DNA of 24,246 bases from a virus, in IMG/VR virus record IMGVR_UViG_3300042386_000423, positions 1 through 24,246 of that record; one strand, 5' to 3'. This document shows positions 19,815 to 24,195 of the stretch, piece by piece. Within the stretch, counting starts at the first letter, position 1, and every line of letters begins with the position of its first letter. Made by a program: the position numbers and the translations under genes. The notes under the pieces were generated by a model. That model worked only from the letters and a program-made list of their open reading frames with translations. It was not told where the DNA came from and searched no databases.

Positions 19815-20257
19815 AACTAAACTATCTTAAATTAAGCGTACTCCTATTGGGTGCGCTTTACATCGTGGGAATGCTTTATTTTCTTTACGGTTGTTCAGCA
19901 AGTTACCATTTTACTAAATTCCTGAAGAAAGGCGGAACAATTGACACTACCGAACGAATTGTAAGTGTTGAGAAAGTAATTAAAATAAACGGCAAAGATT
20001 CAATTATTTTCGTTCAGATGCCTTTAAATTGTCCAGACGTACAAATACCACCGACACGCCAAGAAATACGCTATAAGTACAGAATTAAGCGTGATTCAAT
20101 CGAAACGATTAGATACGTTACTAAGTGGAAAACGAAAGAAGTTGTAAAGGTTGCAAAAGTTCAAAACAAATCGAACTGGTTAACGTGGTTGTTAGTTGGT
20201 TTTGGAATTGCGCAAGGTTTAAGATTGGTATGGATTTTAATACAAAAAAGATTATGA
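19811..20257 (+). CDS. Lipoprotein with C-terminal membrane anchor, candidate unimolecular spanin
   Basis: A 148-residue protein with an N-terminal hydrophobic signal (residues ~8-26) ending in a lipobox-like LYGC with Cys28, a central periplasmic part of beta-like, Lys/Arg-rich sequence (KINGKDSIIFVQMPLNCPDV; RQEIRYKYRIKRDSIETIRY), and a C-terminal membrane segment (~123-144, NWLTWLLVGFGIAQGLRLVW). A lipidated N-terminus in the outer membrane and a C-terminal anchor in the inner membrane is the defining layout of T1-type unimolecular spanins, which fuse the two membranes at lysis. The Tyr at position -2 of the lipobox is unusual. Assignment is by architecture. A methyltransferase gene and lysis candidates follow. 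Confidence 0.6.
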   Translation: MKLNYLKLSVLLLGALYIVGMLYFLYGCSASYHFTKFLKKGGTIDTTERIVSVEKVIKINGKDSIIFVQMPLNCPDVQIPPTRQEIRYKYRIKRDSIETIRYVTKWKTKEVVKVAKVQNKSNWLTWLLVGFGIAQGLRLVWILIQKRL

Positions 20258-20898
20258 AAGTCTTAAATTTATACGCTTGTTTAGGTGGTAATCGATACAA
20301 GTGGACGGATTGTGAAGTTACAGCCGTTGAACTTGACCCTGAAGCAGCACGTTTATACCAAGAGCGATTTCCAAACGATACTGTAATAGTTGCAGATGCA
20401 CACCAATATTTGTTAGACCACTTTAAAGAGTTTGATTTTATATGGAGTTCGCCACCTTGCCCAAGTCATTCGAGGGCCAGGTATTGGAGTAGTTCAAATT
20501 ATGAAACAAGAGTCGAACCGATTTACCCAGATTTAAAACTTTATGAAGAAATCTTATTTTTACAGCATTATTATAGAAACGGAAAATTTGTAGTTGAAAA
20601 TGTAATACCTTATTATGAGCCTTTAATACCGTCACAAAAACGTGGACGACATTTATACTGGACAAACTTTCAGCTACCAAATGATTTAAAAGATAGACGA
20701 ATTCAAATTGGAGCTGGAGAAAATGAGTTAAATAGACTTTGTGAGTTTCACGAATATGATTTTACTAAATACAAAGGTTCGCAATCAGTTATAAAAATGG
20801 CTCGCAACCTTGTCGACTATGAAGCTGGATTAACTATCTTCAATACAGCACGTGGAATTATTCAAAAGTCAAATACAACTCAAATAGAACTTTTCTAA
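20254..20898 (+). CDS. Short C5-cytosine DNA methyltransferase
   Basis: A 214-residue enzyme from the ATG at 20254, which overlaps the previous stop (ATGA); longer upstream starts would lie inside the lipoprotein gene. It has the SAM-binding start MKVLNLYACLGGNRYKW, VELD (motif II-like), VADAHQYL, the catalytic WSSPPCPSHSRAR with Cys69, VVENVIPYY (ENV, motif VI), KRGRHLYWTNF, and the C-terminal KMARNLVDYEAGLTIF. These show a Dcm-type enzyme that methylates cytosine at C5. It is smaller than bacterial Dcm proteins, with little room for a target recognition domain. No partner nuclease is seen, so protection against host restriction is the likely role. Confidence 0.85.
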   Translation: MKVLNLYACLGGNRYKWTDCEVTAVELDPEAARLYQERFPNDTVIVADAHQYLLDHFKEFDFIWSSPPCPSHSRARYWSSSNYETRVEPIYPDLKLYEEILFLQHYYRNGKFVVENVIPYYEPLIPSQKRGRHLYWTNFQLPNDLKDRRIQIGAGENELNRLCEFHEYDFTKYKGSQSVIKMARNLVDYEAGLTIFNTARGIIQKSNTTQIELF

Positions 20899-21801: not shown

Positions 21802-21975
21802 ATGAAAATTGAACTAACACAAGAACTAAAATCAGTTAAAGCACAATTAGATTATACTAATAGCTGTTTATCTTTTAATTTAAAAAATTGGGAGCGTAAA
21901 AAATACGAAAAAGTTAAAGAGATACTTATTCGTGAGATTGAATCTTTAGAAAATAGAATTAAATTTTTATCATAA
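21802..21975 (+). CDS. 57-residue helical protein
   Basis: A frame from ATG 21802 to TAA 21973-21975, the first gene after the promoter at 21749. The product is highly charged and helical: MKIELTQELKSVKAQLDYTN, then WERKKYEKVKEILIREIESL. No motif is recognised. Small charged helical proteins in this position may be early host-interaction or DNA-binding factors, but there is no direct evidence. Confidence 0.65.
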   Translation: MKIELTQELKSVKAQLDYTNSCLSFNLKNWERKKYEKVKEILIREIESLENRIKFLS

Positions 21976-21987
21976 AAACTAAACACA

Positions 21988-22068
21988 ATGAGCGGAACAA
22001 TCGTATACTTAATAATCCTTTATTCAATAGTAGCAACAATCAAAATTTTAATACTTAAAACCAAATAA
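21988..22068 (+). CDS. 26-residue membrane peptide
   Basis: A short frame 12 bases after the previous stop; its TAA overlaps the next ATG (TAATG). The product starts MSGTIVYLIILYSIVATIKI and is one hydrophobic helix with a basic tail (LKTK), so it should insert with the C-terminus inside. It has the same length as the membrane peptide at 20898 but no clear sequence relation. Function unknown. Confidence 0.5.
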   Translation: MSGTIVYLIILYSIVATIKILILKTK

Positions 22069-22196
22069 TGAAAAACGAGCGAAACGCAGGACGCAAAAAA
22101 GTCAAGGACGGAACTAAACTAATTATTACAGTTCCAAAATTTAACAAAGAAAAAATAATTGAATTAATTAAACCCTTAATAATTTACGAAAAATGA
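22068..22196 (+). CDS. 42-residue basic protein (NAGRKK type)
   Basis: A short frame joined by TAATG upstream and ATGA downstream. It starts MKNERNAGRKKVKDGTKLII, followed by TVPKFNKEKIIELIKPLIIY. The basic NAGRKK stretch recalls the N-termini of many small phage proteins and resembles an AT-hook-like DNA contact, followed by a short strand and a helix as in ribbon-helix-helix proteins. It could be a truncated or minimal DNA-binding protein. Confidence comes from coupling and composition. Confidence 0.55.
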   Translation: MKNERNAGRKKVKDGTKLIITVPKFNKEKIIELIKPLIIYEK

Positions 22197-22312
22197 AATT
22201 AGACTCAAAGATTAAATTTTTAAACGATGCAGTTGTAATCGTTGTAATACTTATTTTAATAATGTTGGTTGCTTTGGCTAACGTTGACACGATTGTAAAA
22301 TACATTAAGTAA
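22193..22312 (+). CDS. 39-residue single-span membrane protein
   Basis: The frame starts with an ATGA overlap and ends at TAA 22310-22312. The product starts MKLDSKIKFLNDAVVIVVIL and has one membrane helix (residues ~12-30) flanked by a basic N-terminus and VDTIVKYIK. No family recognised. It completes a row of four tiny genes behind the promoter at 21749. Confidence 0.52.
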   Translation: MKLDSKIKFLNDAVVIVVILILIMLVALANVDTIVKYIK

Positions 22313-22328
22313 TCAAATAAAACAAATA

Positions 22329-22350
22329 TATGTACACAACAAAAGGAACG
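22329..22350 (+). repeat. Direct repeat, left copy (22 bp)
   Basis: Identical over 22 bases to 23082-23103, covering the ATG and first seven codons of the DUF3127-like reading frames. The copies are 753 bases apart, flank the HNH gene, and recombination between them would remove it. Confidence 0.9.
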
Positions 22351-22398
22351 CTCAAGGTAGCGAAAGAAACACAAGTTGTAAGTGAAAAATTTTTCTAA
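22330..22398 (+). pseudogene. Truncated 5' end of a DUF3127-like gene
   Basis: A 22-residue frame starting MYTTKGTLKVAKETQVVSEK and stopping at TAA 22396-22398. It matches the N-terminus of the complete gene at 23083 (MYTTKGTIKVINQTQVISES): the first 21 coding bases are identical, then the two diverge while the protein stays alike. The frame stops where the intact protein continues into its core, just before the promoter and HNH gene. It is best read as the leftover 5' end of a second, related gene copy cut by arrival of the HNH cassette. Confidence 0.75.
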
Positions 22399-22413
22399 TT
22401 CATTGATTATTAC

Positions 22414-22421
22414 TATATTTG
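22414..22421 (+). promoter_or_regulatory. Promoter of the HNH cassette (TATATTTG)
   Basis: An exact TAnnTTTG lies 111 bases before the HNH ATG. At the 19-base spacing the -33 position (22392-22394) reads TTT instead of TTG. The expected start site, about six bases on, falls at the 5' arm of the long inverted repeat. Confidence 0.6.
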
Positions 22422-22424
22422 TAT

Positions 22425-22502
22425 GCTATCCAGTTTATGACAAAAACATTAAAATATTCCCGAAATACAATTGCCTTTCAACATTCTGTTGGACTGGATA
22501 GC
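22425..22502 (+). ncRNA. Structured leader RNA of the HNH gene
   Basis: GCTATCCAGT (22425-22434) is perfectly complementary to ACTGGATAGC (22493-22502), and the stem can extend inward with two G-U pairs and one A-U pair. The enclosed ~52 bases include the small hairpin CAACA-TTC-TGTTG, which partly competes with the inward extension. The 5' arm starts at the predicted transcription start, and TTTT follows closely. It could be a leader that controls HNH translation or termination, or a separate RNA. It does not match an RNA family known to me. Confidence 0.55.
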
Positions 22503-22511
22503 CTTTTGTAG
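22437..22511 (+). CDS. Possible 24-residue leader peptide within the structured RNA
   Basis: A short frame starting MTKTLKYSRNTIAFQHSVGL and ending at TAG 22509-22511, 20 bases before the HNH ATG. It lies inside the long hairpin, so translation would open the stem and could control the downstream gene. There is no independent support for translation, and it may be chance. Confidence 0.25.
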   Translation: MTKTLKYSRNTIAFQHSVGLDSLL

Positions 22512-22531
22512 AGTAGGGATTTTTTATTATT

Positions 22532-23077
22532 ATGTTAGAAGAAATCTTTAAAGTAATACCTAATACAAATGGTATTTATTTCGCATCAAATGTAGGAACT
22601 ATTAAAAGCATTGACCACAAAGTATTGCACAGCAACGGAGTAACAAGAACACAATACGGTAGGATTTTAAAACCACAAATTTGTAAAAAAGGTTATGTTC
22701 AAGTTTCAGTTAAAATGAATGGTAACTTTATAAATACTGGAGTACATAGATTGGTAGCTTTAGCTTTTATAGAAAACCCAAATAACTATCCTCAAGTAAA
22801 TCATATCAATTGTAAAAAATTAGACAATAGAGTTGAAAACTTAGAGTGGTGTACCAATAAACAAAATAATTTACACGCTATTGAAAACAATTTAATGCGA
22901 CCTAATTATGGAGAAAAGCACCATTTAGCAAAATTGAAAAATGAAGATATACCTTTAATAATTGATAGGATAAATAAAGGGGAAACAATGACAAAAATAG
23001 GTAAAGAGTATTCAATGAGCGCAACAGCAATTTGTAATATTTACCACAGAAAAACGTATATTAATTTAAATCTATAA
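22532..23077 (+). CDS. HNH homing endonuclease (NUMOD4-HNH_3 type)
   Basis: A 181-residue DNA endonuclease. Residues ~1-55 form a NUMOD4-like DNA-contact domain (IFKVIPNTNGIYFASNVGTI; GRILKPQICKKGYVQVSV). The HNH core follows: VHRLVALAFIENP (H72), VNHINCKKLDNRVENLEW (N90, H91, N93, D98, N99, N103). Residues ~131-175 are a C-terminal helix-turn-helix (GETMTKIGKEYSMSATAICN). This is the SPO1 I-HmuI-like architecture of phage homing enzymes, which cut cassette-free DNA and spread by repair. Key residues appear intact. It has its own promoter and leader and is inserted beside a truncated DUF3127-like gene, the probable invaded locus. Confidence 0.9.
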   Translation: MLEEIFKVIPNTNGIYFASNVGTIKSIDHKVLHSNGVTRTQYGRILKPQICKKGYVQVSVKMNGNFINTGVHRLVALAFIENPNNYPQVNHINCKKLDNRVENLEWCTNKQNNLHAIENNLMRPNYGEKHHLAKLKNEDIPLIIDRINKGETMTKIGKEYSMSATAICNIYHRKTYINLNL

Positions 23078-23081
23078 TAAG

Positions 23082-23103
23082 TATGTACACAACAAAAGGA
23101 ACG
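23082..23103 (+). repeat. Direct repeat, right copy (22 bp)
   Basis: The right partner of the repeat at 22329-22350, at the start of the intact DUF3127-like gene. Identity ends after the Thr-7 codon, where the two reading frames begin to diverge. Confidence 0.9.
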
Positions 23104-23415
23104 ATTAAGGTAATTAATCAAACGCAAGTAATTAGCGAAAGTTTTAGTAAAAGAGAATTTGTAATTGAAACAGACGGTCAATATCCAAAGCCAAACGCAT
23201 TTCAAGTTACAAAAGACAAATGTAGTCTATTGGATAATTTTAAAGTAGGTCAACAAGTTGAGGTATTTTGGAACTTAAACGGAAAAGAATGGACGTCCCC
23301 AGCAGGCGAAGTAAAATATTTCAATACGTTAGAAGCATGGCGACTTGAACGCATAGGAACTGAAAAGTTACCTTCAACACCAGTACACGAAGAAGCAGAC
23401 GATTTACCGTTCTGA
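23083..23415 (+). CDS. DUF3127-like single-stranded DNA-binding protein candidate
   Basis: A 110-residue protein. FVIETDGQYPKPNAFQVTKD (residues 26-45), LLDNFKVGQQVEVFWNLNGK and KYFNTLEAWRLERI match the DUF3127 pattern, a short OB-type beta barrel found mainly in Bacteroidetes. The tail EEADDLPF is like the acidic, Phe-ended C-terminus of bacterial SSB that recruits replication partners. Together with the ERF gene just downstream this suggests an SSB-like role in phage replication or recombination; that role is inferred. The start shares a 22-base repeat with the truncated copy at 22330. Confidence 0.75.
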   Translation: MYTTKGTIKVINQTQVISESFSKREFVIETDGQYPKPNAFQVTKDKCSLLDNFKVGQQVEVFWNLNGKEWTSPAGEVKYFNTLEAWRLERIGTEKLPSTPVHEEADDLPF

Positions 23416-23454: not shown

Positions 23455-23488
23455 AACCGTTCATCACATAACCAAGTTTTGAACGGTT
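23455..23488 (+). repeat. Inverted repeat between SSB-like and ERF genes
   Basis: AACCGTTCA (23455-23463) and TGAACGGTT (23480-23488) are perfect complements with a 16-base loop. Only ATTT follows, with no T run, so it is a weak terminator at best; an operator or mRNA-stabilising hairpin is equally possible. The -33-like TTG at 23479-23481 overlaps its right arm. Confidence 0.6.
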
Positions 23489-23497
23489 ATTTAAAAG

Positions 23498-23507
23498 TAA
23501 ATTAGCA
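23498..23507 (+). promoter_or_regulatory. Promoter-like TAAATTAGCA element
   Basis: The same ten bases as at 18445, here 13 bases before the ATG at 23521. It differs from TAnnTTTG at one position. A TTG lies 16 bases upstream inside the inverted repeat, shorter than the usual 19. Confidence 0.35.
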
Positions 23508-23520
23508 AAAAAAAAACAAT

Positions 23521-24195
23521 ATGGAAAAGAAAAAAGAAACAGAAACAGTAATAGTTGAAAAAATGCCAACTATTTACGAAGCAATTTTAAACGTTATGAA
23601 AGACGTTAAGAACATTGAAAAGTCAATGACCGTAGGCGCAGGAAACAGCGCTTATAAAGGGGTTAGCGACAAAGATGTTAAGTATATCGTTGGTAAAGCA
23701 ATGGAAAAACACAACCTTATAATTTTACCTATTGATATTGAACCAAAGTTAACTATTGAACGTTGGGAGGAGGAAACATACGACAACTACCAAAAGAAAA
23801 ACGTAACAAAACAAAAACAATTGGTATTTACTGAAGTTATAACAACTTACAGAATATTCCACACTTTAACTGAAAAATTTGTTGACGTAAAAGGTTATGG
23901 TCACGGAGTTGATAGTCAAGATAAATCAGCAGGAAAAGCAACCACATACGCTTTAAAATACGCTTTACTTTATTCTTTTCTTATTCCAACGGGCGATATT
24001 GACGACACAGATAAAACACACAGCATAGAAGTTGCAACACCTATCAAAGTTCAAAAGATTGAATGCGATGCGCCAACGTTCGAAACTATTAAACAAGCGA
24101 TTATTGACGGTAAAAGAACTATTGAACAAGCTAAGGAAAAATTTATCTTTACTGGAACACAATCAATTGAACTTTTAAACCTTAAAAACAAATAA
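23521..24195 (+). CDS. erf: ERF-family single-strand annealing protein
   Basis: A 224-residue recombination protein. The N-terminal part has MPTIYEAILNVMKDVKNIEK and YKGVSDKDVKYIVGKAMEKH; the family signature is GYGHGVDSQDKSAGKATTYA with LKYALLYSFLIPTGDIDDTD (residues ~125-164). ERF proteins anneal complementary single strands and help circularise or recombine phage genomes. The last 50 residues are a separate helical tail. It is preceded by the SSB-like gene, a common functional pairing, and followed two bases later by another gene. Confidence 0.9.
   Translation: MEKKKETETVIVEKMPTIYEAILNVMKDVKNIEKSMTVGAGNSAYKGVSDKDVKYIVGKAMEKHNLIILPIDIEPKLTIERWEEETYDNYQKKNVTKQKQLVFTEVITTYRIFHTLTEKFVDVKGYGHGVDSQDKSAGKATTYALKYALLYSFLIPTGDIDDTDKTHSIEVATPIKVQKIECDAPTFETIKQAIIDGKRTIEQAKEKFIFTGTQSIELLNLKNK

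What the first reader, a model, noticed from the sequence alone, without database searches (positions are those of the whole stretch)
22329..23415. HNH cassette between a truncated and an intact DUF3127-like gene with a 22-bp direct repeat
The ORF at 22330 copies the N-terminus of the intact protein at 23083 and breaks off just before the HNH cassette. The first 22 bases are identical in both copies, while the rest is similar only at protein level. This suggests the endonuclease arrived with, or split, a related DUF3127 gene from another phage, leaving the host phage with one working copy. Recombination between the repeats would delete the endonuclease and leave one intact gene, so the arrangement may be reversible and keeps an essential gene intact.
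Basis: partly seen in the sequence, partly recalled or inferred. Interest (0 to 1): 0.72.

Follow-up and report, generated by a model that had tools for sequence, protein, structure and literature searches.

The report
Homing nuclease scar in phage SSB gene
In this Bacteroidetes-type phage a selfish DNA-cutting gene has entered the gene for the virus's single-stranded-DNA-binding protein, carrying the front two-thirds of another phage's version of that gene with it, so the virus keeps a working hybrid gene and a 21-codon broken piece of its own old gene; ten other phage loci carry related cutting genes parked at the same gene.

Summary
In detail: a 22-aa stub (22330-22395), a NUMOD4-HNH gene (22532-23077), an intact DUF3127 gene (23083-23415) and a 22-bp repeat. 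DUF3127 is an SSB-type ssDNA-binding protein (predicted OB fold, DDLPF tip). Against cassette-free relatives the junctions map sharply: resident DNA (L013 type) to 22392; incoming DNA with the HNH gene and another SSB allele (L002 type, 66/66 diagnostic sites) to 23286; resident again from 23295. So only the first ~68 SSB codons came with the nuclease, and the working gene is a hybrid. Nine HNH genes, the window's included, form one clade, all directly upstream of a DUF3127 gene; two more sit there independently, while those DUF3127 genes are scattered on their own tree. Best reading: intronless homing, as in T4 segG/gene 32, that ended one-sidedly: homologous on the right, illegitimate on the left. 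It mirrors fungal mitochondrial mORFs that replace C-termini. Cleavage and mobility are inferred; the junction is known from one contig and no donor was found. In passing: many such HNH genes have a promoter box plus a stem/pseudoknot leader absent from Rfam.

The parts
22329..22350 (+). 22-bp direct repeat, copy 1 (base before the start codon plus first 21 nt of the stub)
   Evidence: exact match to 23082-23103
22330..22395 (+). 5' stub of the resident SSB (DUF3127) gene; resident sequence ends at 22392, after codon 21 (KF|SKRE)
   Evidence: nt 22-63 are 42/42 identical to L009/L017 and 41/42 to L013; the 40 nt upstream are 40/40 identical to L013; blastn match to L013 ends at 22392
22392..22393 (.). 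left junction, resident | incoming DNA; no homology beyond about TTT seen
   Evidence: donor sequence on this side not found
22414..22421 (+). TATATTTG, a Bacteroidetes-type -7 box (TAnnTTTG) upstream of the HNH gene
   Evidence: sequence; similar position relative to the stem in relatives
22425..22502 (+). structured leader: closing stem GCUAUCCAGU/ACUGGAUAGC, with a weak pseudoknot (UCCC/GGGA) towards the HNH start
   Evidence: 0 to 0.5% of dinucleotide shuffles score as high; similar stems, with changes on both sides, in relatives
22532..23077 (+). NUMOD4-HNH endonuclease gene (181 aa), I-HmuI type, putative free-standing homing endonuclease
   Evidence: Pfam and PHROGs; PDB 1u3e E=1.6e-9; tree
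23083..23415 (+). intact hybrid SSB (DUF3127) gene, 110 aa, ending DDLPF
   Evidence: Pfam, PHROG 4932, OB-fold model
23083..23286 (+). foreign 5' part of the SSB gene (allele B)
   Evidence: 66/66 sites that differ between L002 and L013 are of type B
23286..23295 (.). right junction, incoming | resident DNA, inside codons 68-71
   Evidence: last B site 23286, first A site 23295; then 7 A, 0 B, 1 neither
23082..23103 (+). 22-bp direct repeat, copy 2
23521..24195 (+). ERF-family ssDNA-annealing recombinase gene, downstream neighbour, resident type
   Evidence: Pfam ERF E=3.4e-12; 90.6% to L013 over 23455-24188

Best explanation
The HNH gene belongs to a lineage of free-standing homing endonucleases that lives at the SSB (DUF3127) gene of Bacteroidetes-type phages. 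In a mixed infection, an HNH gene sitting directly upstream of an allele-B SSB gene met a phage with an allele-A SSB gene. The enzyme most likely cut or nicked allele A somewhere in codons 22-71, perhaps around the conserved KFSKREF codons. Repair copied the HNH gene and the first ~200 bp of the donor SSB gene into the gap. On the right the repair ended by homologous recombination inside the SSB gene, in the short conserved stretch at 23286-23295. On the left the region upstream of the SSB gene differs between phages, so there was little homology, and the broken resident end was joined illegitimately a little upstream of the HNH promoter box, leaving a 21-codon stub. The hybrid SSB gene is intact and carries the donor version of the cut region, which should make it resistant. 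Shown: junctions, allele origins, and clade-wide association of HNH and SSB genes. Inferred: cleavage, its site, the repair route and resistance.
For: Sharp mosaic: resident to 22392, allele B at 66/66 sites to 23286, resident type from 23295 (7 A, 0 B) and in the downstream ERF gene. Cassette-free forms of both parental alleles exist. Nine HNH proteins including the window's form a clade (UFBoot 100, SH-aLRT 93), all 9 directly upstream of DUF3127; L086 and L392 do so independently; 3 label changes on the tree against 10.7 in shuffles, 0/500 as low. The HNH-adjacent SSB genes are scattered on the SSB tree, at least 3 changes forced, so the nuclease moves between SSB lineages. The enzyme is of I-HmuI type. 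DUF3127 is an SSB by predicted fold (Foldseek best E=8e-6, VIA Z=12.3) and C-tip. Precedent: T4 SegG lies upstream of gene 32 (SSB), targets it and moves with it (PMC2988022, PMC535899).
Against: No donor with this HNH next to an allele-B gene was found; the nearest HNH relatives are 52-54% identical. The junction is known from this one contig only; its 24-mer is not in other IMG/VR records. Activity is not shown. HNH enzymes usually nick, and how a nick starts homing is unsettled (PMC2988022). Where within 22393-22531 the nuclease cassette proper begins cannot be told.
Confidence: 0.75

Rival explanations
1. Passive mosaicism: ordinary illegitimate recombination in a phage variable region brought in an HNH gene and part of a neighbouring SSB gene; the nuclease did nothing to cause it and merely lives nearby.
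For: The region upstream of the SSB gene is variable in relatives (methyltransferases or other genes in L002, L008 and L016; a different HNH in L006). Allele B also occurs without any HNH behind two different upstream flanks (L002, L004).
Against: It does not explain why HNH genes of one clade sit at the same place, a few nt upstream of SSB genes, in nine different phage lineages, nor why the resident gene was broken inside the SSB gene itself.
Confidence: 0.17
2. Assembly chimera: the contig joins reads from two phages of the same sample.
For: It is a metagenomic contig, and no other record holds the left junction.
Against: It would need two switches 0.9 kb apart, one of them without visible shared sequence and the other in a stretch of only 8 bases between diagnostic sites, far shorter than usual assembly overlaps. 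The HNH-SSB order and spacing are those of ten other loci.
Confidence: 0.05
3. The short ORF is a functional leader peptide or upstream ORF of an HNH-SSB operon, not a scar.
For: It keeps the resident start region and opens a transcript unit.
Against: None of the other HNH-SSB loci has such an ORF clearly above shuffle level (L215's score of 33 against 29 lies inside the upstream gene), and its sequence is simply the resident SSB start cut off after codon 21.
Confidence: 0.02
4. A mobile intron: the cassette is a group I intron or a trans-spliced gene, so stub and 3' part are exons.
For: HNH enzymes of this type often sit in group I introns.
Against: The downstream gene has its own complete start only 5 nt after the HNH stop; nothing in 22200-23200 approaches an Rfam intron model.
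Confidence: 0.01

Closest known systems
T4 SegG / gene 32 intronless homing
   Same: Free-standing endonuclease gene directly upstream of the phage SSB gene; SegG is reported to target gene 32 and to carry gene 32 along when it spreads to T2 (PMC2988022, PMC535899).
   Different: HNH/NUMOD4 here against GIY-YIG there; SSB of DUF3127/bacterial SSB fold against gp32; the SegG accounts read here mention no broken target copy, whereas here the left end kept a stub.
Fungal mitochondrial mobile ORFs with target-gene termini (Allomyces atp6; Glomus atp6, atp9, cox2, nad3)
   Same: An endonuclease gene brings a foreign end of its target gene, makes a hybrid gene and leaves the displaced native end as a remnant (PMC3630166).
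   Different: There the C-terminus is replaced and the remnant lies downstream; here the N-terminal part is replaced and the remnant lies upstream. Phage instead of mitochondrion; HNH instead of LAGLIDADG or GIY-YIG.
I-HmuI and phage NUMOD4-HNH endonucleases
   Same: HNH core and motif order; PDB 1u3e matches with E=1.6e-9.
   Different: I-HmuI lies in a group I intron of a Bacillus phage; this one is free-standing with its own promoter-like box and leader.
HEGs at boundaries of exchange between phages (PMC10448857)
   Same: HEGs lie next to essential genes and at recombination borders.
   Different: That abstract speaks of HEG islands of more than 10 kb flanked by HEGs; here one HEG, both junctions mapped, tract 0.9 kb. 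I read its abstract and keyword passages only.

Membership tests
Free-standing (intronless) homing endonuclease | intact homing-type nuclease domain | tested here: met
   NUMOD4 and HNH_3 above curated cut-offs; conserved HNH-region residues retained in the alignment of five relatives; I-HmuI match
Free-standing (intronless) homing endonuclease | not inside an intron or intein | tested here: met
   own ORF between two separate ORFs; no intron model near 22200-23200
Free-standing (intronless) homing endonuclease | patchy presence next to a conserved gene, with cassette-free relatives | tested here: met
   L002-L005, L007 and L013 lack it at this locus; 11 non-redundant loci, window included, have an HNH of this kind directly upstream of DUF3127
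Free-standing (intronless) homing endonuclease | co-conversion of target-gene sequence | tested here: met
   foreign allele tract running from the HNH gene into the SSB gene to 23286
Free-standing (intronless) homing endonuclease | site-specific cleavage of the cassette-free allele, biased inheritance in crosses | not testable with these tools
   needs enzyme assays and mixed infections
SSB (bacterial type) | OB fold of SSB type | tested here: met
   AlphaFold2 model pLDDT 87.8; best solved matches are SSBs, E=8e-6, Z=12.3
SSB (bacterial type) | acidic C-terminal tip ending in a PF-type motif | tested here: met
   ...EEADDLPF; most of 55 diverse DUF3127 proteins end alike
SSB (bacterial type) | binds ssDNA | not testable with these tools
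   no binding assay
Target-terminus-replacing mobile ORF (mORF of fungal mitochondria) | element carries a foreign end of its target gene and leaves the displaced native end | tested here: met
   foreign 5' part plus native 5' stub
Target-terminus-replacing mobile ORF (mORF of fungal mitochondria) | replaces the C-terminal end | tested here: not met
   the N-terminal end is replaced; works like it, mirrored, but is not filed as a member
Group I intron | ribozyme core around the HNH ORF | tested here: not met
   no Rfam intron match up to E=10; 5 nt between HNH stop and the next start codon

The most novel reading that the evidence does not exclude
The HNH gene and the resistant 5' part of the SSB gene form one recurring mobile unit that needs homology on the right side only: it repairs its target by supplying a new N-terminal part and leaves the old one as a stub. 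This would let a homing endonuclease enter phages whose upstream region is unrelated to the donor's, a mirror image of the C-terminus-replacing mORFs.
Probability: 0.2. Interest if true: 0.72.

Novelty: new variant of a known kind. Interest (0 to 1): 0.6.

Why it matters
Homing events in phages are usually seen only as presence or absence of the nuclease. Here a single natural event is mapped on both sides: 8-9 bp resolution on the right, a defined end of resident sequence on the left, and both parental alleles known without the nuclease. It makes three points testable: that a whole HNH clade is dedicated to SSB genes across divergent phages, that an incoming allele protects the gene, and that homing can finish with homology on one side only, which would widen the range of phages such genes can enter. 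It also shows how essential replication genes of phages become hybrids, and gives a concrete functional reading (SSB) for DUF3127, which is still named as unknown in Pfam.

Tried and rejected
(1) A stub in other cassettes: a faint resemblance upstream of the L086 HNH was tested and dropped (HMM score -1.1, shuffles up to 3.9); L215 scores 33 against a shuffle maximum of 29, but the stretch lies inside its upstream gene. (2) Group I intron: no Rfam match. (3) Close copies of the cassette or donor: a six-peptide scan with the HNH protein gave only 52% and 45% relatives, a stem pattern gave 0 hits, the junction 24-mer 0 hits, and GTDB genomes no close relative and none next to a DUF3127 gene. (4) Repeat as a target-site duplication: rejected, both copies are start regions of the same gene family and the repeat begins at the base before the start codon. 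(5) Conversion of the first 21 nt of the stub by the intact copy: suggested by L013 (upstream 40/40, then 15/21, then 41/42) but not needed, since A-type genes L005 and L007 have the same 21 nt. (6) MAFFT alignment of the leaders could not hold the closing stem in register (one group has an extra pair), so no covariance model was built. (7) Cultured phages: the HNH and DUF3127 searches gave separate hits; adjacency was not checked record by record.

Full report
What is there. The window is a 24,246-base virus contig. At its right end lie a 22-codon ORF (22330-22395), a 181-aa NUMOD4-HNH gene (22532-23077), a 110-aa DUF3127 gene (23083-23415) and an ERF recombinase gene (23521-24195), all on the + strand. 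The direct repeat is exactly 22 bp, 22329-22350 and 23082-23103; after it the copies share 28 of 42 nt.

What the DUF3127 protein is. PHROG 4932 calls it a single strand DNA binding protein. An AlphaFold2 model from 40 relatives (pLDDT 87.8) matches solved SSBs: 2fxq with E=8e-6 by Foldseek, 5odn with Z=12.3 over 91 residues by VIA-align; the low-confidence part is the tail. The protein ends in EEADDLPF, and most of 55 diverse DUF3127 proteins end in a DDLPF-like tip, as bacterial SSBs end in an acidic tip with PF (general knowledge). I treat it as the phage SSB.

Where the stub comes from. Among 80 related loci in IMG/VR, L013 and L014 are 92% identical to the window over 21975-22392, up to the end of the stub and no further. 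The 40 bases before the stub's start are 40/40 identical to L013, and stub bases 22-63 are 42/42 identical to L009 and L017 and 41/42 to L013. In those phages the gene runs on without interruption. The stub is therefore the resident gene, broken after codon 21. Only its first 21 bases differ from L013 (15/21); they equal those of allele B and also of the A-type genes L005 and L007, so either an older variant or a short conversion explains them.

Where the intact gene comes from. L002, L003 and L004 carry a nearly identical 5' part without an HNH gene and without a stub. At sites where L002 and L013 differ, the window has the L002 base at all 66 sites up to 23286; from 23295 on (to 23352) it has the L013 base at 7, neither at 1 and the L002 base at none (a stricter set of 55 sites agrees). 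The ERF gene downstream is also of L013 type (90.6% over 737 b). The incoming tract thus ends inside the SSB gene at codons 68-71, and the working protein is a hybrid: donor N-terminal two-thirds, resident C-terminal third and tail. About 140-150 bp of the resident gene (nt 64 to 203-212) were replaced by about 0.9 kb.

The nuclease and its kin. The best solved relative is I-HmuI (1u3e, E=1.6e-9). Scans with several HNH queries and DUF3127 queries, and a systematic search for DUF3127 beside HNH genes, gave eleven non-redundant pairs, window included, in which an HNH gene of this kind lies directly upstream of a DUF3127 gene on the same strand: window, L082, L084, L086, L215, L380, L381, L384, L385, L388, L392. 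In a tree of 141 HNH proteins, nine of these form one clade (UFBoot 100, SH-aLRT 93) with no member elsewhere; the label needs 3 changes against 10.7 on shuffled labels, none of 500 as low. The bootstrap had not fully settled. Sampling is biased towards relatives of my queries, but the queries that found the clade members were HNH proteins, not DUF3127 genes, except for L215. On the DUF3127 tree the HNH-adjacent genes are scattered, with at least 3 changes forced (short alignment, several long branches). So the nuclease lineage keeps its place next to SSB genes while moving between SSB lineages. A more distant HNH also lies upstream of the SSB gene in L006.

How it most likely works. A nuclease gene next to one allele of a conserved gene, absent from relatives with other alleles, with target-gene sequence carried along, is the pattern of intronless homing; T4 segG does this at gene 32, the T4 SSB gene (PMC2988022; PMC535899). 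In the usual case both flanks are homologous and the recipient gene is restored without trace. Here the upstream flank differs between phages of this group, and the left end was joined without visible homology, leaving the stub. The right end was resolved by homology inside the SSB gene. I infer, and did not show, that the break was made by this enzyme in the replaced stretch, and that the donor sequence there is resistant.

What it resembles. Mobile ORFs of fungal mitochondria bring a foreign C-terminus of their target gene and leave the native one downstream as a remnant (PMC3630166). The window shows the mirror case in a phage. My literature searches (open-access text only) found no phage case with a displaced N-terminal stub, which is not proof that none exists.

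The leader. Upstream of the HNH gene lie a TATATTTG box and a stem GCUAUCCAGU/ACUGGAUAGC enclosing about 58 nt. Similar leaders with different sequences occur in relatives: stems GCUUAUUCGUU/AACGGAUAAGC (L095), GCUAUCUGAUU/AAUCGGAUAGC (L381), CCGCCAAG/CUUGGCGG (L084), GUGUGGA/UCCACAC (L082), UAUAUGGA/UCCAUAUA (L122); and loop pairings with the segment before the HNH start, CCCGACA/UGUCGGG (L095), CCCGUAAA/UUUACGGG (L381), AUUCCCUUUC/GAAAGGGAAU (L084), GUGUUUA/UAAACAC (L082), GCGUUUA/UAAACGC (L122). Among leaders with a box, 14 of 21 HNH leaders but 24 of 143 control leaders beat 95% of shuffles (Fisher p=5e-6). In the window itself the pseudoknot is weak (4 pairs). Nothing in Rfam matches. The leader also occurs at HNH genes that are not beside an SSB gene, so it belongs to the nuclease gene; control of HNH translation, as T4 does with RNA structures at its endonuclease genes (PMC2988022), is a guess.

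Limits. One contig; no donor found; no activity data; chance of a chimeric assembly judged low but not excluded. Whether the incoming DNA between 22393 and the promoter box belongs to the cassette cannot be told.

Noticed in passing
window 22414-22531; L082 2882-2985, L084 2915-3006, L095 2875-2988, L381 2862-2985; also L122, L101, L134, L336: Candidate structured RNA leader of NUMOD4-HNH genes in Bacteroidetes-type phages: TAnnTTTG box, closing stem, pseudoknot between loop and the segment before the start codon, often a U-run; stems and pseudoknots change on both sides between relatives; not in Rfam 15.
   Followed up: partly
L381 2862-2988 and L392 2862-2988: Nearly identical leaders and the same protein start (MENQKE) in front of HNH proteins from different parts of the HNH tree, so leader and nuclease body seem to be exchanged as modules.
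   Followed up: no
L390 985-3107, L399 2226-4349, L391: Related HNH genes, in L390 and L399 with the same type of leader, lie between a recombinase gene (ERF in L390) and a ~280-aa gene (RASMxGALxTEG) without a Pfam match, in the same recombination module as DUF3127.
   Followed up: partly
L385 2281-2367 and L386 2281-2367: A fragment matching the first ~30 residues of the HNH family lies upstream of the ERF gene, with a full HNH gene between ERF and DUF3127: possibly a remnant of an earlier HEG.
   Followed up: no
L002 2703-3776, L008 3351-3979, L016 1-556, L006 3385-3990: The position just upstream of the SSB gene is variable in this phage group: cytosine methyltransferase-like genes or another HNH gene; the methyltransferase-like gene of the window itself sits at 20212-20898 instead.
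   Followed up: no
window 23083-23415 and relatives: Pfam DUF3127 ('unknown function') has an SSB-type OB fold and an SSB-like acidic C-tip, so the family can be read as phage SSB.
   Followed up: yes
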